From contig JBFLXN010000005.1 of the NCBI GenBank assembly GCA_040755715.1, forward strand, positions 1 to 32,798: DNA of 32,798 bases, in the 5' to 3' direction. Below the pieces are notes generated by a model. That model saw only the letters and a program-made list of their open reading frames with translations. It was not told the DNA's origin and did not search any database. Numbering within the stretch: the first letter of the stretch is position 1; every line of letters starts with the position of its first letter. A program made the translations under genes and the position numbers. This DNA comes from JBFLXN01 sp040755715 [NCBI: Candidatus Edwardsbacteria bacterium]. GTDB lineage: Bacteria > Edwardsbacteria > AC1 > JBFLXN01. This document shows, piece after piece, positions 703 to 23,665 of the stretch.

Positions 703-775
703 CCTCACCCTCAATCCCTCTCTTACCTGTCCGCCGTGCTTGTGGCGGAACGCTTTAGGAGAGGGAAGGGTGAGG
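703..775. repeat. Dispersed palindromic element, CCTCACCC...GGGTGAGG type
   Basis: A 73-bp imperfect palindrome. The outer arms are CCTCACCCTCAATCCCTCTC and GAGAGGGAAGGGTGAGG; the centre holds a small hairpin TCCGCC/GGCGGA. The same design (CT-rich arm, inner hairpins, GA-rich arm) recurs at 4163-4206 and, inside the rnpA coding sequence, at 10686-10778. Here it is intergenic, just ahead of the ribosome binding site of the next gene. Confidence 0.8.
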
Positions 776-2695: not shown

Positions 2696-3439
2696 AAATG
2701 CTCACTTCGAGATCCAGAAATAAAGAAGAGGTAATCAGTAATAGGGTGACAAAAAATGCTTGAATATATAATTTGGACATTGTTGTGCCTGTTTTGCCTG
2801 AATAGGCTTATAGCATGGGTAACTATCTTCAAAAAATGGAAATGGAATAAGTGGTATGGGACAATAGTAGTTTCAATAACGGGTGTTACTTTAATCTGTT
2901 TGCCACTTGCTCCTCAACCGAGGTTAGGGTTAGATATTTTTTCATTGTTATGGCGTATTGTAGGGATCATTGTTTTTATAATTGGAATATTTGTTTTGAA
3001 GCTTGCTGATCAAGAATTTCATAAGACGGGAATACAGCCAGATACCATAACAACTAAACTGGTAACTACAGGGGTATACAGTATTGTGAGACATCCTCAA
3101 TACTTAGGTCTCAACATCTCCTTTGTGGGATGGTCTTTAATTTGGGGTGCGATTTATTGTTTCTATTTAATTCCTGTCATAATTTTCTTAAACTGGTTAC
3201 AAGCCTTTCTTGAAGAAAAATGTATACTTGTGAAAGAATTTGGTGACGAATATAAAGAATATAAGAAAAAAGTGGGAATGTTTCTACCGAAAATAATGAG
3301 GGGATGATGGTTATGGAAACTAAAAATGCTATTCCCTCGTTCGCACTATCGCCTAACACAGCATATAAGTTTGGGGCTATCGCCCTTACCCTTTGGAACA
3401 TTGCTCCCTTCAGTCGCAACGTCGTATATGCTTGAGCCG
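2689..3439 (+). mobile_element. Integron-type gene cassette 2 (membrane methyltransferase)
   Basis: The cassette opens with TTAGGCG (core GTTAGGCG at 2688-2695) and its own R'' box, CGCCTAAC at 3350-3357, is the exact reverse complement of that core. It ends at the G of the next GTTAGGCG at 3439, giving 751 bp and a single + strand gene. The 23 bases at 2687-2709 are identical to 3438-3460, so cassette 2 and the sequence after it share the same left edge beyond the core itself. Confidence 0.8.
2756..3307 (+). CDS. Isoprenylcysteine carboxyl methyltransferase (ICMT)-family membrane methyltransferase
   Basis: A 183-residue integral membrane protein with about five hydrophobic segments (near residues 3-22, 33-52, 63-83, 115-135 and 138-155). 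The C-terminal half carries the family signature: LVTTGVYSIVRHPQYLGL (about residues 101-118), where the RHP motif helps bind S-adenosylmethionine, and EEKCILVKEFGDEYKEYKKK near the end. Known relatives methylate isoprenylcysteine in eukaryotes and phospholipids or unknown small molecules in bacteria; the substrate here is unknown. It is the only gene of cassette 2. A moderate ribosome binding site (AGGGTGAC) precedes the ATG. It is odd but notable that both complete cassettes carry methyltransferases of unrelated folds. Confidence 0.85.
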   Translation: MLEYIIWTLLCLFCLNRLIAWVTIFKKWKWNKWYGTIVVSITGVTLICLPLAPQPRLGLDIFSLLWRIVGIIVFIIGIFVLKLADQEFHKTGIQPDTITTKLVTTGVYSIVRHPQYLGLNISFVGWSLIWGAIYCFYLIPVIIFLNWLQAFLEEKCILVKEFGDEYKEYKKKVGMFLPKIMRG

Positions 3440-3446
3440 TTAGGCG
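3350..3446 (+). other. attC-like recombination site 2
   Basis: R'' is CGCCTAAC (3350-3357), the left stem AGCATATA (3360-3367), and the right stem TATATGCT (3425-3432) is its perfect complement. After the spacer TGAGCC comes R' GTTAGGCG (3439-3446). The 57-base variable middle contains a GGGC/GCCC hairpin. Overall length 97 bp. Spacers of 2 and 6 bases give the expected asymmetry. Confidence 0.8.
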
Positions 3447-3510
3447 AAATGCTCACTTCGGGGCAAAATATAAAAGTGGAAAAAACAATCTTAAAAGGAG
3501 GTAATTAAAA

Positions 3511-4290: not shown

Positions 4291-4399
4291 CATATGGAAC
4301 CATAGATTACACAGATTAACACGGATTTTCACCCCGATAAAATCGGGGTGTCAATCCCTCGGCCGTAGCCTACGGGCGAGGCTGTGGCTAATGAATTTT
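4291..4399. repeat. Dispersed CACAGATTAACAC repeat with a covarying hairpin module
   Basis: It begins with CATATGGAACCA, runs through ATTACACAGATTAACACGG, and contains the perfect 9-bp hairpin CACCCCGAT/ATCGGGGTG at 4330-4350. A second hairpin region (GGCCGTAGCC, CGGGCGAGGC) and the complementary end GGCTGTGGCTAA follow. The same module is found inside the WecA-like gene at 20605-20625 and in altered form elsewhere. The start CATATGGAACCA is repeated in inverse at 6516-6527. Confidence 0.8.
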
Positions 4400-6531: not shown

Positions 6532-6846
6532 ATGAAGAAAAAACAGGTTTCAATTCCTTCTGATTTCAGACTATATTTTTGGGATACCTCTATTAAGAAT
6601 ATTGATTTACGAAAACATCAAATCTATGTTATAGAAAGATTATTAGAGTATGGTAATGAGAAAGCGGTTCGCTGGATGTTTAAACATTTTAGGCGGCGAA
6701 CGATTATGGAGACCTTGAAAAAAAGTCGGGTCCTTTCCCAAAGGACGGCTAATTTCTGGGCAATGTTCTTTGGATTGAATAAGAAAGAAGTTTTATGTTT
6801 GACTCCGCAATTTCAAAAGATACAAAGACTATTCTGGCCCTATTAA
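6532..6846 (+). CDS. DUF6922-like partner protein of the AbiEii-type gene
   Basis: A 104-residue basic cytosolic protein. The pattern FRLYFWDTSIKNIDLRKHQIYVIERLLEYGNEKAVRWMF, followed by a helix and LSQRTANFWAMFFGL, matches DUF6922, a domain regularly encoded before AbiEii-type nucleotidyltransferases. It overlaps the next gene by 52 bases, which is strong evidence of co-expression. By analogy with AbiEi it could be the antitoxin or transcriptional repressor, although it lacks an obvious winged-helix signature. The last 15 residues lie in the overlap and may be less constrained. The start codon follows TATGTTCG without a good ribosome binding site. Confidence 0.75.
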   Translation: MKKKQVSIPSDFRLYFWDTSIKNIDLRKHQIYVIERLLEYGNEKAVRWMFKHFRRRTIMETLKKSRVLSQRTANFWAMFFGLNKKEVLCLTPQFQKIQRLFWPY

Positions 6847-7424
6847 GAGAGAGAGATTTTCCTTTAGAGGCTTATCTTGCTGGTGGTACGGGTTGTGCTT
6901 TACAACTTGGGCATCGCTTCTCTTTTGATTTGGATTTTTTTATTGAGAAAGAATTTGATGTTGAGAAAATATTGAGGGTTTTTCAAAATATTCCTAAGTT
7001 CAAATGTGAACAAATAAAGTGGGGAACACTTCTTGGTAAATTCAAAGAAATTGGGTTTAGTCTTTTTTACTATCCTTACCCGCTCATTTATCCAACAAAA
7101 ATATTTCAACAAGTTCGGATTGCTGACTTGCAGGATATTGCGGCGATGAAGTTAGCAGCCATCGCCGCTAGAGGAAGGAAGCGAGATTTTATAGATCTCT
7201 ATTTCATTTTGCAGAACTCTTTAGATTGGAAAACTATTTTCAACACTTATGAAAAAAAATACAGGAATTTATCTGAGGCATTCCTTCACCTTATGAAAAG
7301 CCTCTCCTATTTTGAAGATGCGGAAAAGGATACGATACCACTAATGATAGAAAAAGTTCGCTGGGCAGAAGTAAAAAAATTTTTTGAGAAGGAAACCAAA
7401 AGAATAACGGAAAAACTTATTTAA
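6795..7424 (+). CDS. AbiEii/AbiGii-type nucleotidyltransferase (toxin family)
   Basis: A 209-residue nucleotidyltransferase. The motif LAGGTGCALQLGHRFSFDLDFF (residues 28-49) contains the GG-T turn and the acidic pair D45 and D47. The AbiEii family lysine/aspartate helix is clear in DIAAMKLAAIAARGRKRDFIDLYFIL (about residues 112-137). The remainder is helical. In the type IV toxin-antitoxin AbiE system, the AbiEii protein transfers nucleotides and can modify tRNA, with AbiEi as antitoxin and repressor. Here the partner is the overlapping DUF6922-like gene, so the pair is likely a variant of this system. The gene starts inside its partner with AAGAAAG upstream of the ATG. Toxicity is inferred, not shown. 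Confidence 0.85.
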   Translation: MFDSAISKDTKTILALLRERDFPLEAYLAGGTGCALQLGHRFSFDLDFFIEKEFDVEKILRVFQNIPKFKCEQIKWGTLLGKFKEIGFSLFYYPYPLIYPTKIFQQVRIADLQDIAAMKLAAIAARGRKRDFIDLYFILQNSLDWKTIFNTYEKKYRNLSEAFLHLMKSLSYFEDAEKDTIPLMIEKVRWAEVKKFFEKETKRITEKLI

Positions 7425-10333: not shown

Positions 10334-10412
10334 ACCACGAAGGCACGAAAGTCTATTATAGAATTTGAACTAGACTAAGGAATAATTTCGTGATTTTCGC
10401 GTTTTCGTGGTT
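10334..10412. repeat. Inverted ACCACGAAGGCACGAAAG repeat upstream of rpmH
   Basis: The left arm ACCACGAAGGCACGAAAG (10334-10351) is mirrored on the right by TTTCGTG and GTTTTCGTGGTT, ending 19 bases before the rpmH start. It is built like the ACACAGATT repeats but from a different unit. The rest of the spacer from 10237 holds short CGCCAGACGC and ACGCTAAACGC-type repeats also met at 1600-1640. Confidence 0.75.
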
Positions 10413-10431: not shown

Positions 10432-10566
10432 ATGAAACGCACTTATCAACCAAGCCGGATTAAGAGAAAAAGAACTCACGGCTTTCGTAAAAGAATGCGG
10501 ACTAAAGACGGGAGGAAAATCTTAAGCCGAAGAAGAGCCAAGGGAAGAAAACGATTGACCGTATGA
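10432..10566 (+). CDS. rpmH: 50S ribosomal protein L34
   Basis: A 44-residue, very basic protein with the typical L34 opening [20 protein letters not shown], the central [11 protein letters not shown] and the end [12 protein letters not shown]. It binds 23S rRNA in the large ribosomal subunit. Length is normal for the family. GAAGGAGTAAAG is the ribosome binding site. The stop overlaps the rnpA start in ATGA, so the two are translationally coupled, as in most bacteria. dnaA, often found upstream, is replaced here by ppdK. Confidence 0.97.
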
Positions 10567-11042
10567 TAAAAAAAGAAGGGTTTCCCAAAACTGAGCGCTT
10601 GAGTAAGAAAAAAGATTTTCAGCAAGTATTTGAAAAAGGTAGAAAACTTGAAGGGAAGCTATTTTCTCTTCGCTTATTAGAGAGACCTCACCCCTTCCCT
10701 CCGGTAGGACAGACATCTTGCCTGTCCTGCACCCCGACTGTGTCGGGGTGCCACCCGAGGGAGAAAGGGAGAGGTGAGAAGATTGCGACGAAATCGCATA
10801 TCTTGTGTCGGGTGGGATTTGTAGTGAGCAAAAAGATTGGTAAGGCCGTAGTGAGAAATAAAGTCAAAAGAAGATTAAGAGAATCCTATCGGCGCCTGAA
10901 AGCAGAAATTAGAAATGACTTTGACCTTATCTTCCTAGCGAAACCAACAATTGTTGAAGCCACTTATTGGGAAATCAAAAAAGAGATGGAAGAACTTTTC
11001 CAAAAGGCACAGTGGGAGAAAGAACTAAAGGTAGAAGGATAA
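10563..11042 (+). CDS. rnpA: Ribonuclease P protein component with an in-frame insertion
   Basis: A 159-residue RNase P protein, which assists the catalytic RNA in maturing tRNA 5' ends. Conserved parts are present: [19 protein letters not shown] (residues 11-29), the strand LFSLRLL, then [28 protein letters not shown] (83-110) with the basic RNR-type motif (98-103), and the end with DLIFLAKP. Between the first strand and RVGF, where relatives have a loop of about 8 residues, there are about 40 residues. They include a stretch (42-72) encoded by a 93-bp palindromic element; 93 is divisible by three and the frame stays open. The insertion ([15 protein letters not shown]...) is Pro-, Cys- and Gly-rich, unlike the rest. 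The loop position suggests that the enzyme still works. Confidence 0.95.
10686..10778. repeat. Palindromic element inserted in frame in rnpA
   Basis: The outer arms CCTCACCCCTTCCCTCCGG and CCGAGGGAGAAAGGGAGAGGTGAG pair imperfectly. Inside are two hairpins: AGGACAG/CTGTCCT (10706-10728) and the perfect CACCCCGAC/GTCGGGGTG (10730-10750). The whole element is 93 bp and adds 31 codons without a stop. It combines the CCTCACCC arm type of 703-775 with the CACCCCGA module of 4330-4350. Confidence 0.85.
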
Positions 11043-20338: not shown

Positions 20339-20346
20339 CCACGCTT

Positions 20347-21612
20347 TTAGCGGGATCCCGCCAAAGGCGGGAGATTTTTGGTATTTGAATTTCTATGCCC
20401 GAATACCCACAACCGTTGCATTCCCCAAGTAGAGAAAATAATAATTAGAATGGCAAAAATTATACTCTGGCTCTGAGTTAATCTGGTAAATCCTAAACCA
20501 ATCACACCGTAAATTCCAGAAAAGACATACATTGAAATTACGGTAGTCTGATGGGCGAATCCTTTCTTCTTCAAGATATTTAGCCACAGATTAACACAGA
20601 TTTTCACCCCGATAAAATCGGGGTGTAATTCTGTGGCTTTATTCAAATTCCTATGCTTCAAGGTATTAGCCACAGAATCACACTGGCTCGCCCGTCCCGA
20701 TTTCATCGGGACGCCCCAGGGAATTTCACTGAATTTTTCTCTGTTTTTTATGTAAAATTCTGTGGTTTTATTCAAAATCTTATGCTGTAAAATATCATAA
20801 ATATGACTTCGGTCGCCAGTAAAAAGGTCTCTTTTCTCTCTAAAACGCCGCAAAAGGGCAGAAGCCGTATCAGCTACGGGGATAAAAAGAATTAGCAGTG
20901 GTGCTAAAACCCACTTAAAATCATAGGGCCGATTACTGAAAATTAAAGCAATACAGGCTAAATTAAAACCAAGAAAGAGACTTCCACCATCACCTAAAAA
21001 GATTTTGGCAGGATAAAAGTTATGATATAAGAACCCAAGGGAAATGCCTAATAATATTAAAGAAATAGCCAACGCCAGATGATTTCCTGAAGATAGAGAA
21101 AGTAGAGAAAAAAATCCAAGGATAATCGCAGACATTCCGGTGGCTAGACCATCCATTCCATCAGAAAGGTTCAGAGCATTTGCCCCCCCCACTAGATAAA
21201 AAATAGTCAGAGGTAAAGAAATCCACCACTGAGGCAAGAAACCAAAATGTAATCCAAAAGCAATAGGAATTATAGAGGCAATTATTTCCCAGATAAATTT
21301 TTTAAGTGGAGAAATTTCTTTTAGGTCATCCAAAAGACCAATAGCAAAGATGAAAAGTCCTCCTCCCATAATACCTGCCAGGAGTCTACGCTCCAGTGAA
21401 GTCAAGAGCGAATTAGTTATAAGATAAATGCTGGGTAAAAGAAAGGCGAAGAAAAAGACAAGTCCACCACTTCGGGGTATAGTTTCAGTATGAATGCTCA
21501 GTTCCCTGGGTTTATCAACTGTTCCCATCTTGTGACCGGCTCGTCCGGCCAAGGGAGTAAATAGAAGAGCGAATAAAAAAGTAACTAAAAAAATGGCTAA
21601 GTAGATAGACAT
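20347..21612 (-). CDS. WecA/MraY-type polyprenyl-phosphate glycosyl-1-phosphate transferase with in-frame repeat insertion
   Basis: A 421-residue integral membrane enzyme with about ten hydrophobic segments. It should transfer a sugar-1-phosphate, probably a GlcNAc-type one, from UDP-sugar to undecaprenyl phosphate. Motifs: GLLDDLKEISPLKK (aspartate pair), NALNLSDGMDGLATG, FLGDGGSLFLGF and the cytoplasmic loop TGDRSHIYDIL (D267-L275). After the loop, relatives continue directly with the sequence KKGFAHQTTV, here at residues 349-358. In between lie 72 extra residues encoded by repeat elements, in units of 43 and 29 residues; L275, L318 and L347 are equivalent. Without them the protein would be 349 residues, a normal size. 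An upstream promoter lies at 21638-21667. The enzyme is well placed to initiate the polysaccharide built by the glycosyltransferases on this strand. Confidence 0.9.
   Translation of the reverse strand: MSIYLAIFLVTFLFALLFTPLAGRAGHKMGTVDKPRELSIHTETIPRSGGLVFFFAFLLPSIYLITNSLLTSLERRLLAGIMGGGLFIFAIGLLDDLKEISPLKKFIWEIIASIIPIAFGLHFGFLPQWWISLPLTIFYLVGGANALNLSDGMDGLATGMSAIILGFFSLLSLSSGNHLALAISLILLGISLGFLYHNFYPAKIFLGDGGSLFLGFNLACIALIFSNRPYDFKWVLAPLLILFIPVADTASALLRRFREKRDLFTGDRSHIYDILQHKILNKTTEFYIKNREKFSEIPWGVPMKSGRASQCDSVANTLKHRNLNKATELHPDFIGVKICVNLWLNILKKKGFAHQTTVISMYVFSGIYGVIGLGFTRLTQSQSIIFAILIIIFSTWGMQRLWVFGHRNSNTKNLPPLAGSR
20569..20797. repeat. Two palindromic units inserted in the WecA-like gene
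   Basis: Two CCACAG...CTGTGG units lie at 20584-20636 and 20670-20765. The first contains the hairpin CACCCCGAT/ATCGGGGTG (20605-20625), the second CGTCCCGAT/ATCGGGACG (20693-20713). The flanking 32-base segments 20637-20668 and 20766-20797 are near-identical direct repeats, 129 bp apart; a shorter third copy of the target lies at 20568-20582. Together they add 216 bp and keep the frame. Confidence 0.8.
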
Positions 21613-21782: not shown

Positions 21783-22205
21783 TCAAATAGATACTTCCTT
21801 CAGTTTCTGGTAAATACTATGTATGGCCAGGTAAACCTCATCTTTTTTTATAAATTTATATATTTCTTTTGCCTCCTCAAGTCCATAGATGTGAACAATC
21901 TGATTTCTCTTATCTACCATCTCAAAAAATAGGTTTTCATATTTTTCTTCAATAAGACCTCTTTTAAATGCCTCCTTAAAATACTGTAACGGCGTGGTGC
22001 AAATCAATCCTTCAATTCTTAAATATTCCTTAATGGACTTCCACAAGGCTTCAAAGGTGTATTCAAAACGCTTTGTGGCAACTTCTATGATTAACTCTTC
22101 GCTTAAGAAATCAAATACTAAAGGTTGCCTAATTATTTCTTCAAATTTCTTAAACGCTTTTCTAAATTTTTCAAAAGTTCTTTGGAATTTTTCCCCTTTT
22201 TCCAT
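21783..22205 (-). CDS. HEPN-domain toxin, HI0074 type
   Basis: A 140-residue helical protein of the nucleotidyltransferase substrate-binding (HI0074) family, a HEPN ribonuclease in type VII toxin-antitoxin systems. The HEPN catalytic motif Rx4H is present as RNQIVH (R100 to H105). The long helices FEKFRKAFKKFEEIIRQP and RFEYTFEALWKSIKEYLR are typical. It overlaps the upstream nucleotidyltransferase gene by 73 bases, which ties the two products stoichiometrically. In HEPN/MNT systems the MNT protein adds AMP groups to the HEPN protein and silences it. The start at 22205 has GGAAAAATTCC before it, a weak site. Confidence 0.9.
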   Translation of the reverse strand: MEKGEKFQRTFEKFRKAFKKFEEIIRQPLVFDFLSEELIIEVATKRFEYTFEALWKSIKEYLRIEGLICTTPLQYFKEAFKRGLIEEKYENLFFEMVDKRNQIVHIYGLEEAKEIYKFIKKDEVYLAIHSIYQKLKEVSI

Positions 22206-22504
22206 ATTAAGCCATCCTTTAATATATTTGCTAACAATTTCTTATCAAGATTTCCATCGCTAAGGTTAATTAAATCTATAGACCTTAAGGTTGGAACTTT
22301 GTTTTCTAACTCTTCTCGCACTTGCGCTATTACAGAAGCGGGTATAATTTCTTTAGAATATATAGCTAAATCTATATCAGAGGCAATGTCTTGAGTATTT
22401 TTAGCAAACGAGCCAAATATAAAAAGAATGTAGTCTTCTCCAAAATATTTATCAAAGATAGAAATTATCCTCTCCTTTATTTTTTCTATTGTATCGTTAG
22501 ACAT
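22133..22504 (-). CDS. MNT-domain nucleotidyltransferase antitoxin
   Basis: A 123-residue minimal nucleotidyltransferase. The defining motif is FIFGSFAKNTQDIASDIDLAIY, with G31-S32 and the acidic pair D43 and D45; SIDLINL supplies the third acidic residue (D97). It would be the antitoxin that AMPylates its HEPN partner. AAGGGGAAAAATCA gives a ribosome binding site. The pair stands between the WecA-like gene and the glycosyltransferase cluster, as often happens with mobile toxin-antitoxin modules in polysaccharide loci. Confidence 0.9.
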   Translation of the reverse strand: MSNDTIEKIKERIISIFDKYFGEDYILFIFGSFAKNTQDIASDIDLAIYSKEIIPASVIAQVREELENKVPTLRSIDLINLSDGNLDKKLLANILKDGLIWKKGKNSKELLKNLEKRLRNLKK

Positions 22505-22540: not shown

Positions 22541-23665
22541 TTAATTTCCAATCTTCATTCTAAAACGCGCCCACCATACTGGTAAAGTCAAAAGTCCCCA
22601 GAGCGAGCCAAGCCCGTAGGATAAATGCAGAGTGGCGAAGACAAGGGGCAGGCAGAAGAACAACTTCCATTTCGGATTGAGAGCCTCTCCTGAAATGGCG
22701 AAGTTGGGAAGTTGGGAGGTTTGGAAATTAGGAAATTGAGGCTTTTGAGCGCGGCGGCTCAGAAACATTTTAATAGTGAAAAATAGACTGGCTAAAAGGT
22801 AGGTCAAAAGCTCAAAAATCAAAAACCCTTGAGCTAACCCATGAACCCTGCCCCCTGAATCCTGTCCGCTAATTCCTATTACCATTGCTAATAGCAAAAG
22901 CGACCCCACAAATAAGAGCGGCACAAAGTGGCGGAGTTTAGGAGCCCTCGGATTTATCGGCAATGTTCTAACCACACCCATTCCATCCAGCCAGCGTTGG
23001 CGCCAGAGTTCTTTTAAATTGGGCCGACAATAATAGTAGGCTTTTATTTTAGGAGAAAGATAGATTTTATAGCCGGCTATTCTAAGTCTGGAGTTGAAAT
23101 CTATATCTTCGGTGCGGGTAAACCTTTCGTCGAAATACCCCATTTTATCAAAAACTTCTTTCTTAAAGCAACCCAACCAGACTGTCTCTACATAGCCTTC
23201 GTAGTCCGGATTGTGAAATCTGCCACCACCCAAACCAAAAGGAATATAATGAGCCAGCATAATCGCTTCGGATATGGCAGAATTATTAGCAGGCAAAGCC
23301 CGCATATGGCCACCCACGTTAGCCGCTCCAGATTTCGTTAGGACTTCAAGGCAAGACTTTAGGTAGTCATCACCGTATTTGGCGTGAGCGTCCATTCTGA
23401 CAATTATATCGCCCTTGGCATTTTTAATCCCTAAGTTCAGCCCAGCGGTGACTATCTTCATAGGATTGTCTATTATTTTTAAACTTTGATATTTAATTTT
23501 TAAATTTTCTAATATCTCTCTAGTGCCATCATCAGACACGCCATCCACCGCTAAAATCTCATACTGGTCTTTGGAAAAATCTTGGGCGAATATTGAGTTA
23601 ATACAGGCTTCAATATGCTTTGCCTCGTTGCGGATGGGAAGGATAATAGAGACAAAATTAGTCAT
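22541..23665 (-). CDS. GT2 glycosyltransferase, ExoA-like, with repeat-derived segments
   Basis: A 374-residue membrane-attached glycosyltransferase with the GT-A fold. Motifs: VSIILPIRNEAKHIEAC at the start, VDGVSDDGT, the metal-binding DAHAKY, GGHMRALP, HYIPFGLGGGRFHNPDYEG and RTEDIDFNSRL. This set is typical of ExoA-type succinoglycan enzymes. Three or four hydrophobic segments follow after residue 245. Between two of them the stretch QKPQFPNFQTSQLPNF (about residues 307-333 in all) is encoded by a CCAACTTCCCAACTT-type repeat, and GQDSGGRVHGLAQG (about 263-276) by a GGATTCAGGGGGCAGGG-type repeat. Both lie in loops. A further case of coding sequence built from intergenic repeats. Confidence 0.88.
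   Translation of the reverse strand: MTNFVSIILPIRNEAKHIEACINSIFAQDFSKDQYEILAVDGVSDDGTREILENLKIKYQSLKIIDNPMKIVTAGLNLGIKNAKGDIIVRMDAHAKYGDDYLKSCLEVLTKSGAANVGGHMRALPANNSAISEAIMLAHYIPFGLGGGRFHNPDYEGYVETVWLGCFKKEVFDKMGYFDERFTRTEDIDFNSRLRIAGYKIYLSPKIKAYYYCRPNLKELWRQRWLDGMGVVRTLPINPRAPKLRHFVPLLFVGSLLLLAMVIGISGQDSGGRVHGLAQGFLIFELLTYLLASLFFTIKMFLSRRAQKPQFPNFQTSQLPNFAISGEALNPKWKLFFCLPLVFATLHLSYGLGSLWGLLTLPVWWARFRMKIGN

What the first reader, a model, noticed from the sequence alone, without database searches (positions are those of the whole stretch)
10686..10778. Palindromic element in frame within rnpA
Seen directly: a 93-bp element with outer arms and two perfect or near-perfect hairpins lies within the coding sequence and adds 31 codons. 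Known: the RnpA fold and its conserved parts on both sides are intact. The insertion occupies a loop between two strands. Protein-embedded palindromes are known in Rickettsia; to find one in an essential RNA-processing protein of an unrelated lineage is unexpected.
Basis: partly seen in the sequence, partly recalled or inferred. Interest (0 to 1): 0.8.

Follow-up and report, generated by a model that had tools for sequence, protein, structure and literature searches.

The report
REP-dimer palindrome inside RNase P protein gene
A short selfish-looking DNA palindrome of a kind known from many bacteria sits inside the gene for the RNase P protein and is read as a floppy extra loop; the host gene is unusual, the kind of element is not.

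Summary
The 93-bp element at 10686-10778 adds 31 in-frame codons to rnpA, is 64.5% G+C against 37.2% for the rest of the gene, and folds far better than chance (z -5.9 and -7.1; 0 of 500 shuffles reach it). RnpA is otherwise normal. Its beta1-beta2 loop has 56 residues here and 18-24 in 111 of 114 other RnpA. AlphaFold keeps the RnpA fold and leaves residues 41-80 at low confidence without structure. The core (10704-10754) reads GTAG-hairpin-hairpin-CCAC, a head-to-head dimer of GT(A/G)G-tagged REPs. Five dimers in other genomes share its first hairpin with one change. The dimer caps a longer palindrome. Intragenic REP dimers coding 20-30 aa, and dimers nested in longer palindromes, are published (PMC3733652). 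A second conserved gene in the window, a WecA-type transferase, carries a 71-codon in-frame palindromic insert. So this is a real insertion of a known kind in an essential gene, not a Rickettsia-only oddity. No genome is held for the window and no close relative was found, so no empty site and no reads could be checked.

The parts
10432..10566 (+). rpmH, overlapping the start of rnpA by 4 bp (ATGA)
   Evidence: Translation is 44 aa without internal stop; sequence. Named by sequence and position; tblastn matches in the rnpA loci listed
10563..11042 (+). rnpA, RNase P protein, 159 aa
   Evidence: PF00825 8e-30; TIGR00188 1.7e-24; Foldseek matches to RnpA structures such as 1a6f, rmsd 1.8
10686..10778 (+). 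the inserted composite palindrome, 31 codons ([31 protein letters not shown])
   Evidence: G+C 64.5% against 37.2% for the rest of the gene
10686..10702 (+). outer arm, left (CCTCACCCCTTCCCTCC)
   Evidence: pairs with the right arm in the MFE fold
10704..10726 (+). REP 1: GTAG tag plus hairpin GACAGACATCTTGCCTGTC
   Evidence: the same hairpin with one change in L083, L095, L099, L111 and L113 of other genomes
10730..10754 (-). REP 2, inverted: GTGG tag (CCAC on +) plus hairpin CACCCCGACnnnGTCGGGGTG
   Evidence: perfect 10-bp inverted repeat 10729-10738/10742-10751
10757..10778 (+). outer arm, right
   Evidence: pairs with the left arm, last four bases excepted
10784..10798 (+). small adjoining hairpin TGCGACGAAATCGCA; possibly part of the same insertion (inference: counting it brings the residual loop to 18 residues, inside the usual range)
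   Evidence: fold; loop lengths
703..775 (+). palindrome with outer arms of the same type and another centre (TCCGCCGTGCTTGTGGCGGA); intergenic if the next gene starts at the ATG at 803
   Evidence: z -6.7 for 703-776, 0 of 500 shuffles as low
20575..20787 (-). second in-frame palindromic insert, 71 codons, in the WecA-type gene 20347-21612
   Evidence: H(GDRSH) to G(GFAH) is 81 residues here; in the 22 of 30 fetched homologues with the motif it is 9 in 20 (L166 printed as 7, 9 when recounted by eye) and 12 in 2; fold of 20570-20780 z -6.2
20585..20631 (-). copy, inside the WecA-type gene, of the repeat at 4310-4356 (47 bp, 94%)
   Evidence: family D4
4310..4356 (+). second copy of the same repeat, with hairpin CACCCCGATAAAATCGGGGTG, outside any gene recognised here

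Best explanation
A composite palindromic repeat has inserted in frame into rnpA and is translated. Its core (10704-10754) is a head-to-head dimer of two different GT(A/G)G-tagged REPs (REPIN-like). The dimer lies at the apex of a longer palindrome; a palindrome with arms of the same type but another centre lies elsewhere in the window. Such elements spread as small non-autonomous repeats; in the published picture GTAG REPs are thought to be moved by a RAYT-type transposase (inferred here; no RAYT was seen). The copy in rnpA survived because 93 bp keeps the frame, the frame used has no stop, and it landed in a loop between beta1 and beta2 where RnpA tolerates extra residues. The product is a probably disordered linker of about 31-38 residues that leaves the RnpA fold intact. 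Shown here: sequence, frame, tags, dimer orientation, loop position, low-confidence unstructured model of the insert. Inferred: mobility, and near-neutral effect on RNase P.
For: RnpA intact on both sides: PF00825 8e-30 with about 35 surplus residues; 1a6f and 36uk align to residues up to 43 and from 82. Loop 56 against 18-24 in 111 of 114. AlphaFold block means of pLDDT 95-97 in residues 11-40 and 81-110, 51-65 in residues 41-80. G+C contrast 64.5% against 37.2%. The tag-hairpin-hairpin-tag search finds 1 in the window, 5 in the 85 kb of loci L083-L113 (fetched because they match the element, so biased), 3 in 311 kb of G243 and 1 in 1.07 Mb of other loci; two scrambled-tag controls over the same four sets give 1 and 2 in all, inverted tags 0. 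L083 (= L203) repeats the order outer arm, tag, hairpin 1, second hairpin, tag, outer arm. Four of eight distinct dimers sit inside longer palindromes, by eye from MFE folds. A second conserved gene in the window has such an insert. Precedents: PMC3733652 sections 5, 7, 14 and 15.
Against: No close relative was found: the best-scoring PPDK matches reach 69% identity (386 genomes). So no empty site, target duplication or copy number could be measured. Within the window this dimer occurs once. Two bases of the GTAG tag (AG) can pair with CT beyond the hairpin, so the tag is not cleanly unpaired. In L083, L095, L099 and L111 the MFE fold pairs the two REPs with each other into one long hairpin, while the window's fold separately; the paper allows both forms. 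A pattern search with a close variant of hairpin 1 (one mismatch allowed) found 0 of 41 genomes. No RAYT gene was seen among 23 window proteins scanned, but the genome is not held. Several element hits in other genomes look like chance matches in GC-rich coding DNA. The WecA-type insert shows no G+C contrast (0.394 against 0.390, for 20566-20781).
Confidence: 0.85

Rival explanations
1. The hairpins are kept because they work in the rpmH-rnpA mRNA: the three-way RNA structure slows ribosomes, protects the message or is cut by a ribonuclease, so that RnpA output is tuned.
For: Strong predicted RNA fold, z -5.9 on the coding strand; the gene overlaps rpmH in one likely operon.
Against: The fold is stronger on the non-coding strand, as a DNA palindrome does not need a coding-strand RNA role. 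None of 114 other RnpA measured has such an insert: 111 loops are short, and the three long ones are not significantly palindromic. A palindrome with the same type of arms lies before another gene at 703-775.
Confidence: 0.07
2. The loop is a natural lineage-specific RnpA extension whose DNA happens to be palindromic.
For: Natural long loops exist at this place: L068 and L076 (Gardnerella, Bifidobacteriaceae) 61 residues, L135 41.
Against: Those three are not significantly palindromic (z -1.1, -2.2, -1.2), this one is (z -5.9, 0 of 500); foreign G+C content; shared hairpin, tags and layout with repeats of other genomes.
Confidence: 0.04
3. Assembly error or dying gene: the palindrome was misassembled into rnpA, or rnpA is a pseudogene.
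For: Palindromes are hard to sequence and assemble; no reads were available.
Against: Frame and all conserved RnpA parts continue on both sides with no stop. A second in-frame case lies in the WecA-type gene.
Confidence: 0.04

Closest known systems
GTAG-tagged REPs and their head-to-head dimers, also called REPINs (Di Nocera et al. 2013, PMC3733652)
   Same: Short stem-loops with a GTAG/GTGG tag; two different ones head to head with tags outside and a few bp between them (1-5 bp in some published dimers, 20-100 bp in most); inside an ORF, coding 20-30 aa; dimers nested in longer palindromes are reported (abstract and sections 5, 7, 14, 15 read)
   Different: Two bases of the GTAG tag can pair; the lineage is unknown; rnpA is not named in the paper's main text; the gene list in its Additional file 3 was not readable here
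Rickettsia palindromic elements (RPE)
   Same: Palindromic repeats inserted in frame in conserved genes and translated; RPE-4 and RPE-6 are classed as CGTC REPs
   Different: RPEs as first reported are about 150 bp (review PMC10969869, passages); this one is 93 bp with GT(A/G)G tags. Sequences were not compared
MITEs
   Same: Small, non-autonomous, dispersed inverted repeats
   Different: No target-site duplication could be shown and no parent transposon was found

Membership tests
GTAG REP superfamily | short stem-loop, stem 6-13 bp, short loop | tested here: met
   stems of 8 and 9 bp counted between the tags, with one mismatch in all
GTAG REP superfamily | GTAG (or GTGG) tag at the foot of the stem | tested here: met
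   GTAG at 10704-10707; CCAC, the complement of GTGG, at 10751-10754
GTAG REP superfamily | tag unpaired | tested here: inconclusive
   AG of GTAG can pair with CT after the hairpin; inverted repeats start at 10706 and 10729
GTAG REP superfamily | dimer with tags outside (HH; common, not obligatory) | tested here: met
   scrambled and inverted tags give 0 in the window
GTAG REP superfamily | many copies in the host genome | tested here: inconclusive
   no host genome held; one dimer in the window; other genomes hold relatives of hairpin 1
GTAG REP superfamily | cognate RAYT transposase | not testable with these tools
   host genome not held; none among 23 window proteins scanned
Rickettsia palindromic elements | RPE family sequence and size (about 150 bp as first reported), Rickettsia host | tested here: inconclusive
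   93 bp against about 150 bp (PMC10969869), but RPE-4 and RPE-6 are REP-like; no RPE sequence was compared and the host is unknown
MITE | terminal inverted repeats plus target-site duplication | tested here: inconclusive
   outer arms pair; no empty site available to show a duplication
RnpA (PF00825) | RnpA profile and fold | tested here: met

The most novel reading that the evidence does not exclude
This uncultured lineage carries a genome-wide load of protein-coding palindromes comparable to Rickettsia's, built as Russian dolls: REP dimers insert preferentially at the apex of older palindromes, and the stacked elements are repeatedly admitted in frame into conserved, even essential, proteins as disordered linkers. 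Two conserved genes in 33 kb (rnpA and the WecA-type gene) are affected.
Probability: 0.3. Interest if true: 0.5.

Novelty: new member of a known kind. Interest (0 to 1): 0.33.

Why it matters
It is a clean case of a palindromic repeat being tolerated inside an essential RNA-processing protein, and it marks the beta1-beta2 loop of RnpA as an insertion-tolerant site that can be tested in laboratory strains. With the insert in the WecA-type gene it suggests that coding palindromes are common in some uncultured lineages, and that odd PHP..GEG-type peptides in annotated proteins (a resemblance recalled, not tested) may often be such inserts.

Tried and rejected
Identifying the lineage: the RnpA C-terminus against genome contigs gave the best 80 of 347 relatives, 38-56% identity. 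PPDK gave at most 65% (16 genomes), 66% (7) and 69% in the best-scoring matches of 386 genomes. RnpA was searched in the held phylum of G263 (42 of 82 genomes matched), of G702 (5 of 9) and of G211 (4 of 4), and in 23 chosen genomes (16 of 23); best identity 49%. No close relative appeared, so the empty-site comparison failed. A variant of hairpin 1 with one mismatch allowed was in 0 of 41 genomes. Three scans of viral contigs gave only two loci with one hairpin core; the one read (L082) lies in DNA without the rest of the element, and I take both as chance. Rfam found nothing in the window at gathering scores.

Rejected: an RNA-family explanation and a pseudogene (no stops, conserved parts intact). 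Literature: searches for coding palindromes in Rickettsia, palindromic repeats inserted in frame, palindromes or REPs with RNase P protein, REPIN/RAYT within genes and candidate phyla showed no rnpA case; this covers open-licence PMC papers only, judged from listings and starts of abstracts. Ogata 2002 (PMC186582) is not held. Of PMC3733652 I read the abstract and sections 5, 7, 14 and 15 and searched the main text; of PMC10969869 only passages. No AlphaFold run was made for the WecA-type protein.

Rows dropped: one search used 114 of 116 RnpA loci (L117 and L141 had no match at that threshold; both show short loops by eye, as do six further RnpA loci there). One search measured 22 of 30 WecA-type loci; the other 8 did not fit the motif pattern (L154 has the usual short spacing by eye; L179-L183 look MraY-like; L165 and L178 were not measured).

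Full report
What is there. The rnpA gene (10563-11042, overlapping rpmH by ATGA) encodes a 159-residue RNase P protein (PF00825 8e-30; TIGR00188). Within it, 10686-10778 is a 93-bp composite palindrome read as [31 protein letters not shown]. It has outer arms, one hairpin with a single mismatch and one perfect 10-bp hairpin. It folds to -54.1 kcal/mol on the coding strand and -63.3 on the other (z -5.9 and -7.1; 0 of 500 dinucleotide shuffles each). Its G+C is 64.5%, against 37.2% for the rest of the gene.

Where it sits in the protein. In an alignment of 114 other RnpA (of 116 loci), the stretch between the glycine after helix 1 and the RxGF strand has 18-24 residues in 111, 41 in L135, 61 in L068 and L076, and 56 here. 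Against the B. subtilis structure 1a6f the homology stops at residue 43 and resumes at 82. The AlphaFold model (50-row alignment) has mean pLDDT 83.5. The blocks next to the insert on both sides have means of 95-97, while residues 41-80 have block means 51-65 and no secondary structure; strands 34-40 and 82-87 flank the insert. Foldseek finds RnpA structures (best E 5e-9; 1a6f rmsd 1.8, TM by target 0.87). Subtracting 31 codons leaves 25 residues, slightly above the usual range. A small adjoining hairpin (10784-10798) may belong to the insertion and would bring the count to 18 (inference).

What the element is. The core at 10704-10754 reads GTAG-GACAGACATCTTGCCTGTC-CTG-CACCCCGACTGTGTCGGGGTG-CCAC. 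This is the layout of a head-to-head dimer of GTAG-type REPs with tags outside (definitions from PMC3733652 section 5). In the same search the window gave 1 such dimer and 0 with two scrambled-tag controls and with inverted tags. Loci L083-L113, fetched because they match the element, gave 5 in 85 kb (controls 1, 0, 0); 311 kb of genome G243 gave 3 (0, 1, 0); the 80 rnpA loci L001-L080 gave 1 in 1.07 Mb (0, 1, 0). Two G243 hits repeat places of the element loci (L111 = L188, L083 = L203), so there are 8 distinct dimers, the window's included. Five of the other seven share hairpin 1 with one change (GACAGGCATCTTGCCTGTC or its complement). In L083 even the outer arms are of the same type (CCTCACC..CCTCTC / GAGAGG..GGTGA). 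In 4 of the 8 (window, L083, L099, L111), by eye from the folds, the dimer caps a longer palindrome. In L083, L095, L099 and L111 the two REPs pair with each other into one long hairpin, whereas the window's two fold separately; both forms are described. Only the rnpA dimer lies deep inside a long open frame: the others have no frame of 80 codons, lie in frames under 150 codons, or lie within 17 codons of the start of a longer one.

The neighbourhood. The window has 14 hairpins of score 9 or more, against 0-5 in five Markov shuffles. A palindrome with arms of the same type and a different centre lies at 703-775. Five CCCGA-type hairpins occur in the window, against one in 1.09 Mb of the 82 loci then held; the patterns were taken from the window, so this comparison is biased, and two later loci (L087, L092) have one each. 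A WecA-type glycosyl-phosphate transferase gene (20347-21612, PF00953) carries a second in-frame insert of 71 codons. Between the conserved H and G the 22 of 30 homologues with the motif have 9 residues (20; one recounted by eye) or 12 (2), and this protein has 81. The insert contains a 47-bp repeat that is 94% identical to a copy at 4310-4356. Its flanking text is repeated (DIL-QHKILNK, NTL-KHRNLNK, NIL-KKKGF), as if two palindromes had been taken up one after the other (by eye). Unlike the rnpA element it has no G+C contrast.

How far it is shared. A DNA search with the element found matches at E <= 0.01 in 7 of 242 genomes and 15 of 297; G243 is in both. Several of these look like chance matches to outer-arm letters in GC-rich genes. 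A variant of hairpin 1 was in 0 of 41 genomes. No genome close to the window was found: the best-scoring PPDK matches reach 69% identity (386 genomes), and RnpA at most 49% in the searches.

Comparison with what is known. PMC3733652 (abstract and sections 5, 7, 14, 15 read) describes GTAG and CGTC REPs in more than 80 species of 8 phyla, tag variants such as GTGG, heterodimers, dimers with 1-5 bp between partners in some cases and 20-100 bp in most, dimers nested in longer palindromes (A. variabilis, H. neapolitanus), and intragenic REPs in several species, of which more than half are dimers or groups coding 20-30 residues, including genes for RNA-binding proteins. The rnpA element fits each of these points except that part of its GTAG tag can pair. 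rnpA, RNase P and ribonuclease P do not occur in its main text; its supplementary gene list was not available. Rickettsia palindromic elements as first reported are longer (about 150 bp, passages of PMC10969869), though RPE-4 and RPE-6 are counted as CGTC REPs; none was compared by sequence.

Verdict. A real in-frame insertion of a known kind of repeat into an unusual host gene. The most likely course is RAYT-type or similar dispersal of a non-autonomous palindrome, followed by survival where frame and loop allowed. The mobility step and the neutral effect are inferred, not shown.

Noticed in passing
2688-2709 and 3351-3460: Two sites share 23 nt (CGTTAGGCGAAATGCTCACTTCG); the second is bounded by GCCTAAC and GTTAGGC with partly complementary inner flanks, resembling integron attC sites (resemblance recalled). 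The methyltransferase genes 1812-2597 and 2756-3307 would be the cassettes.
   Followed up: partly
2623-2682: Another nested palindrome: outer arms CGGTGTTTGTG / CACAAACACCG round two perfect hairpins, the same layout as in rnpA (z -5.1 for 2608-2685).
   Followed up: partly
22700-22738: Glycosyltransferase gene 22541-23665 contains an 8-nt tandem repeat (GAAGTTGG) apparently read in frame as PQFPNFQTSQLPNF, possibly a third coding insert of another repeat type.
   Followed up: no
20342-20369: A palindrome supplies the last codons and stop of the WecA-type gene.
   Followed up: no
10334-10411: Repeat ACCACGAAGGCACGAAAG...TTTCGTGATTTTCGCGTTTTCGTGGT before rpmH, a palindrome of yet another type.
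   Followed up: no
L034:7744-7799: An unrelated GTAG REP dimer lies just upstream of rnpA in a Bacillota MAG.
   Followed up: no
L068, L076: Gardnerella and a Bifidobacteriaceae RnpA have a natural 61-residue loop at the same place, without significant palindrome.
   Followed up: partly
6532-7424 and 21783-22504: Pairs that look like nucleotidyltransferase toxin-antitoxin modules: DUF6922 with AbiEii-like, and NTase_sub_bind/HepT-like with a Polbeta nucleotidyltransferase.
   Followed up: no
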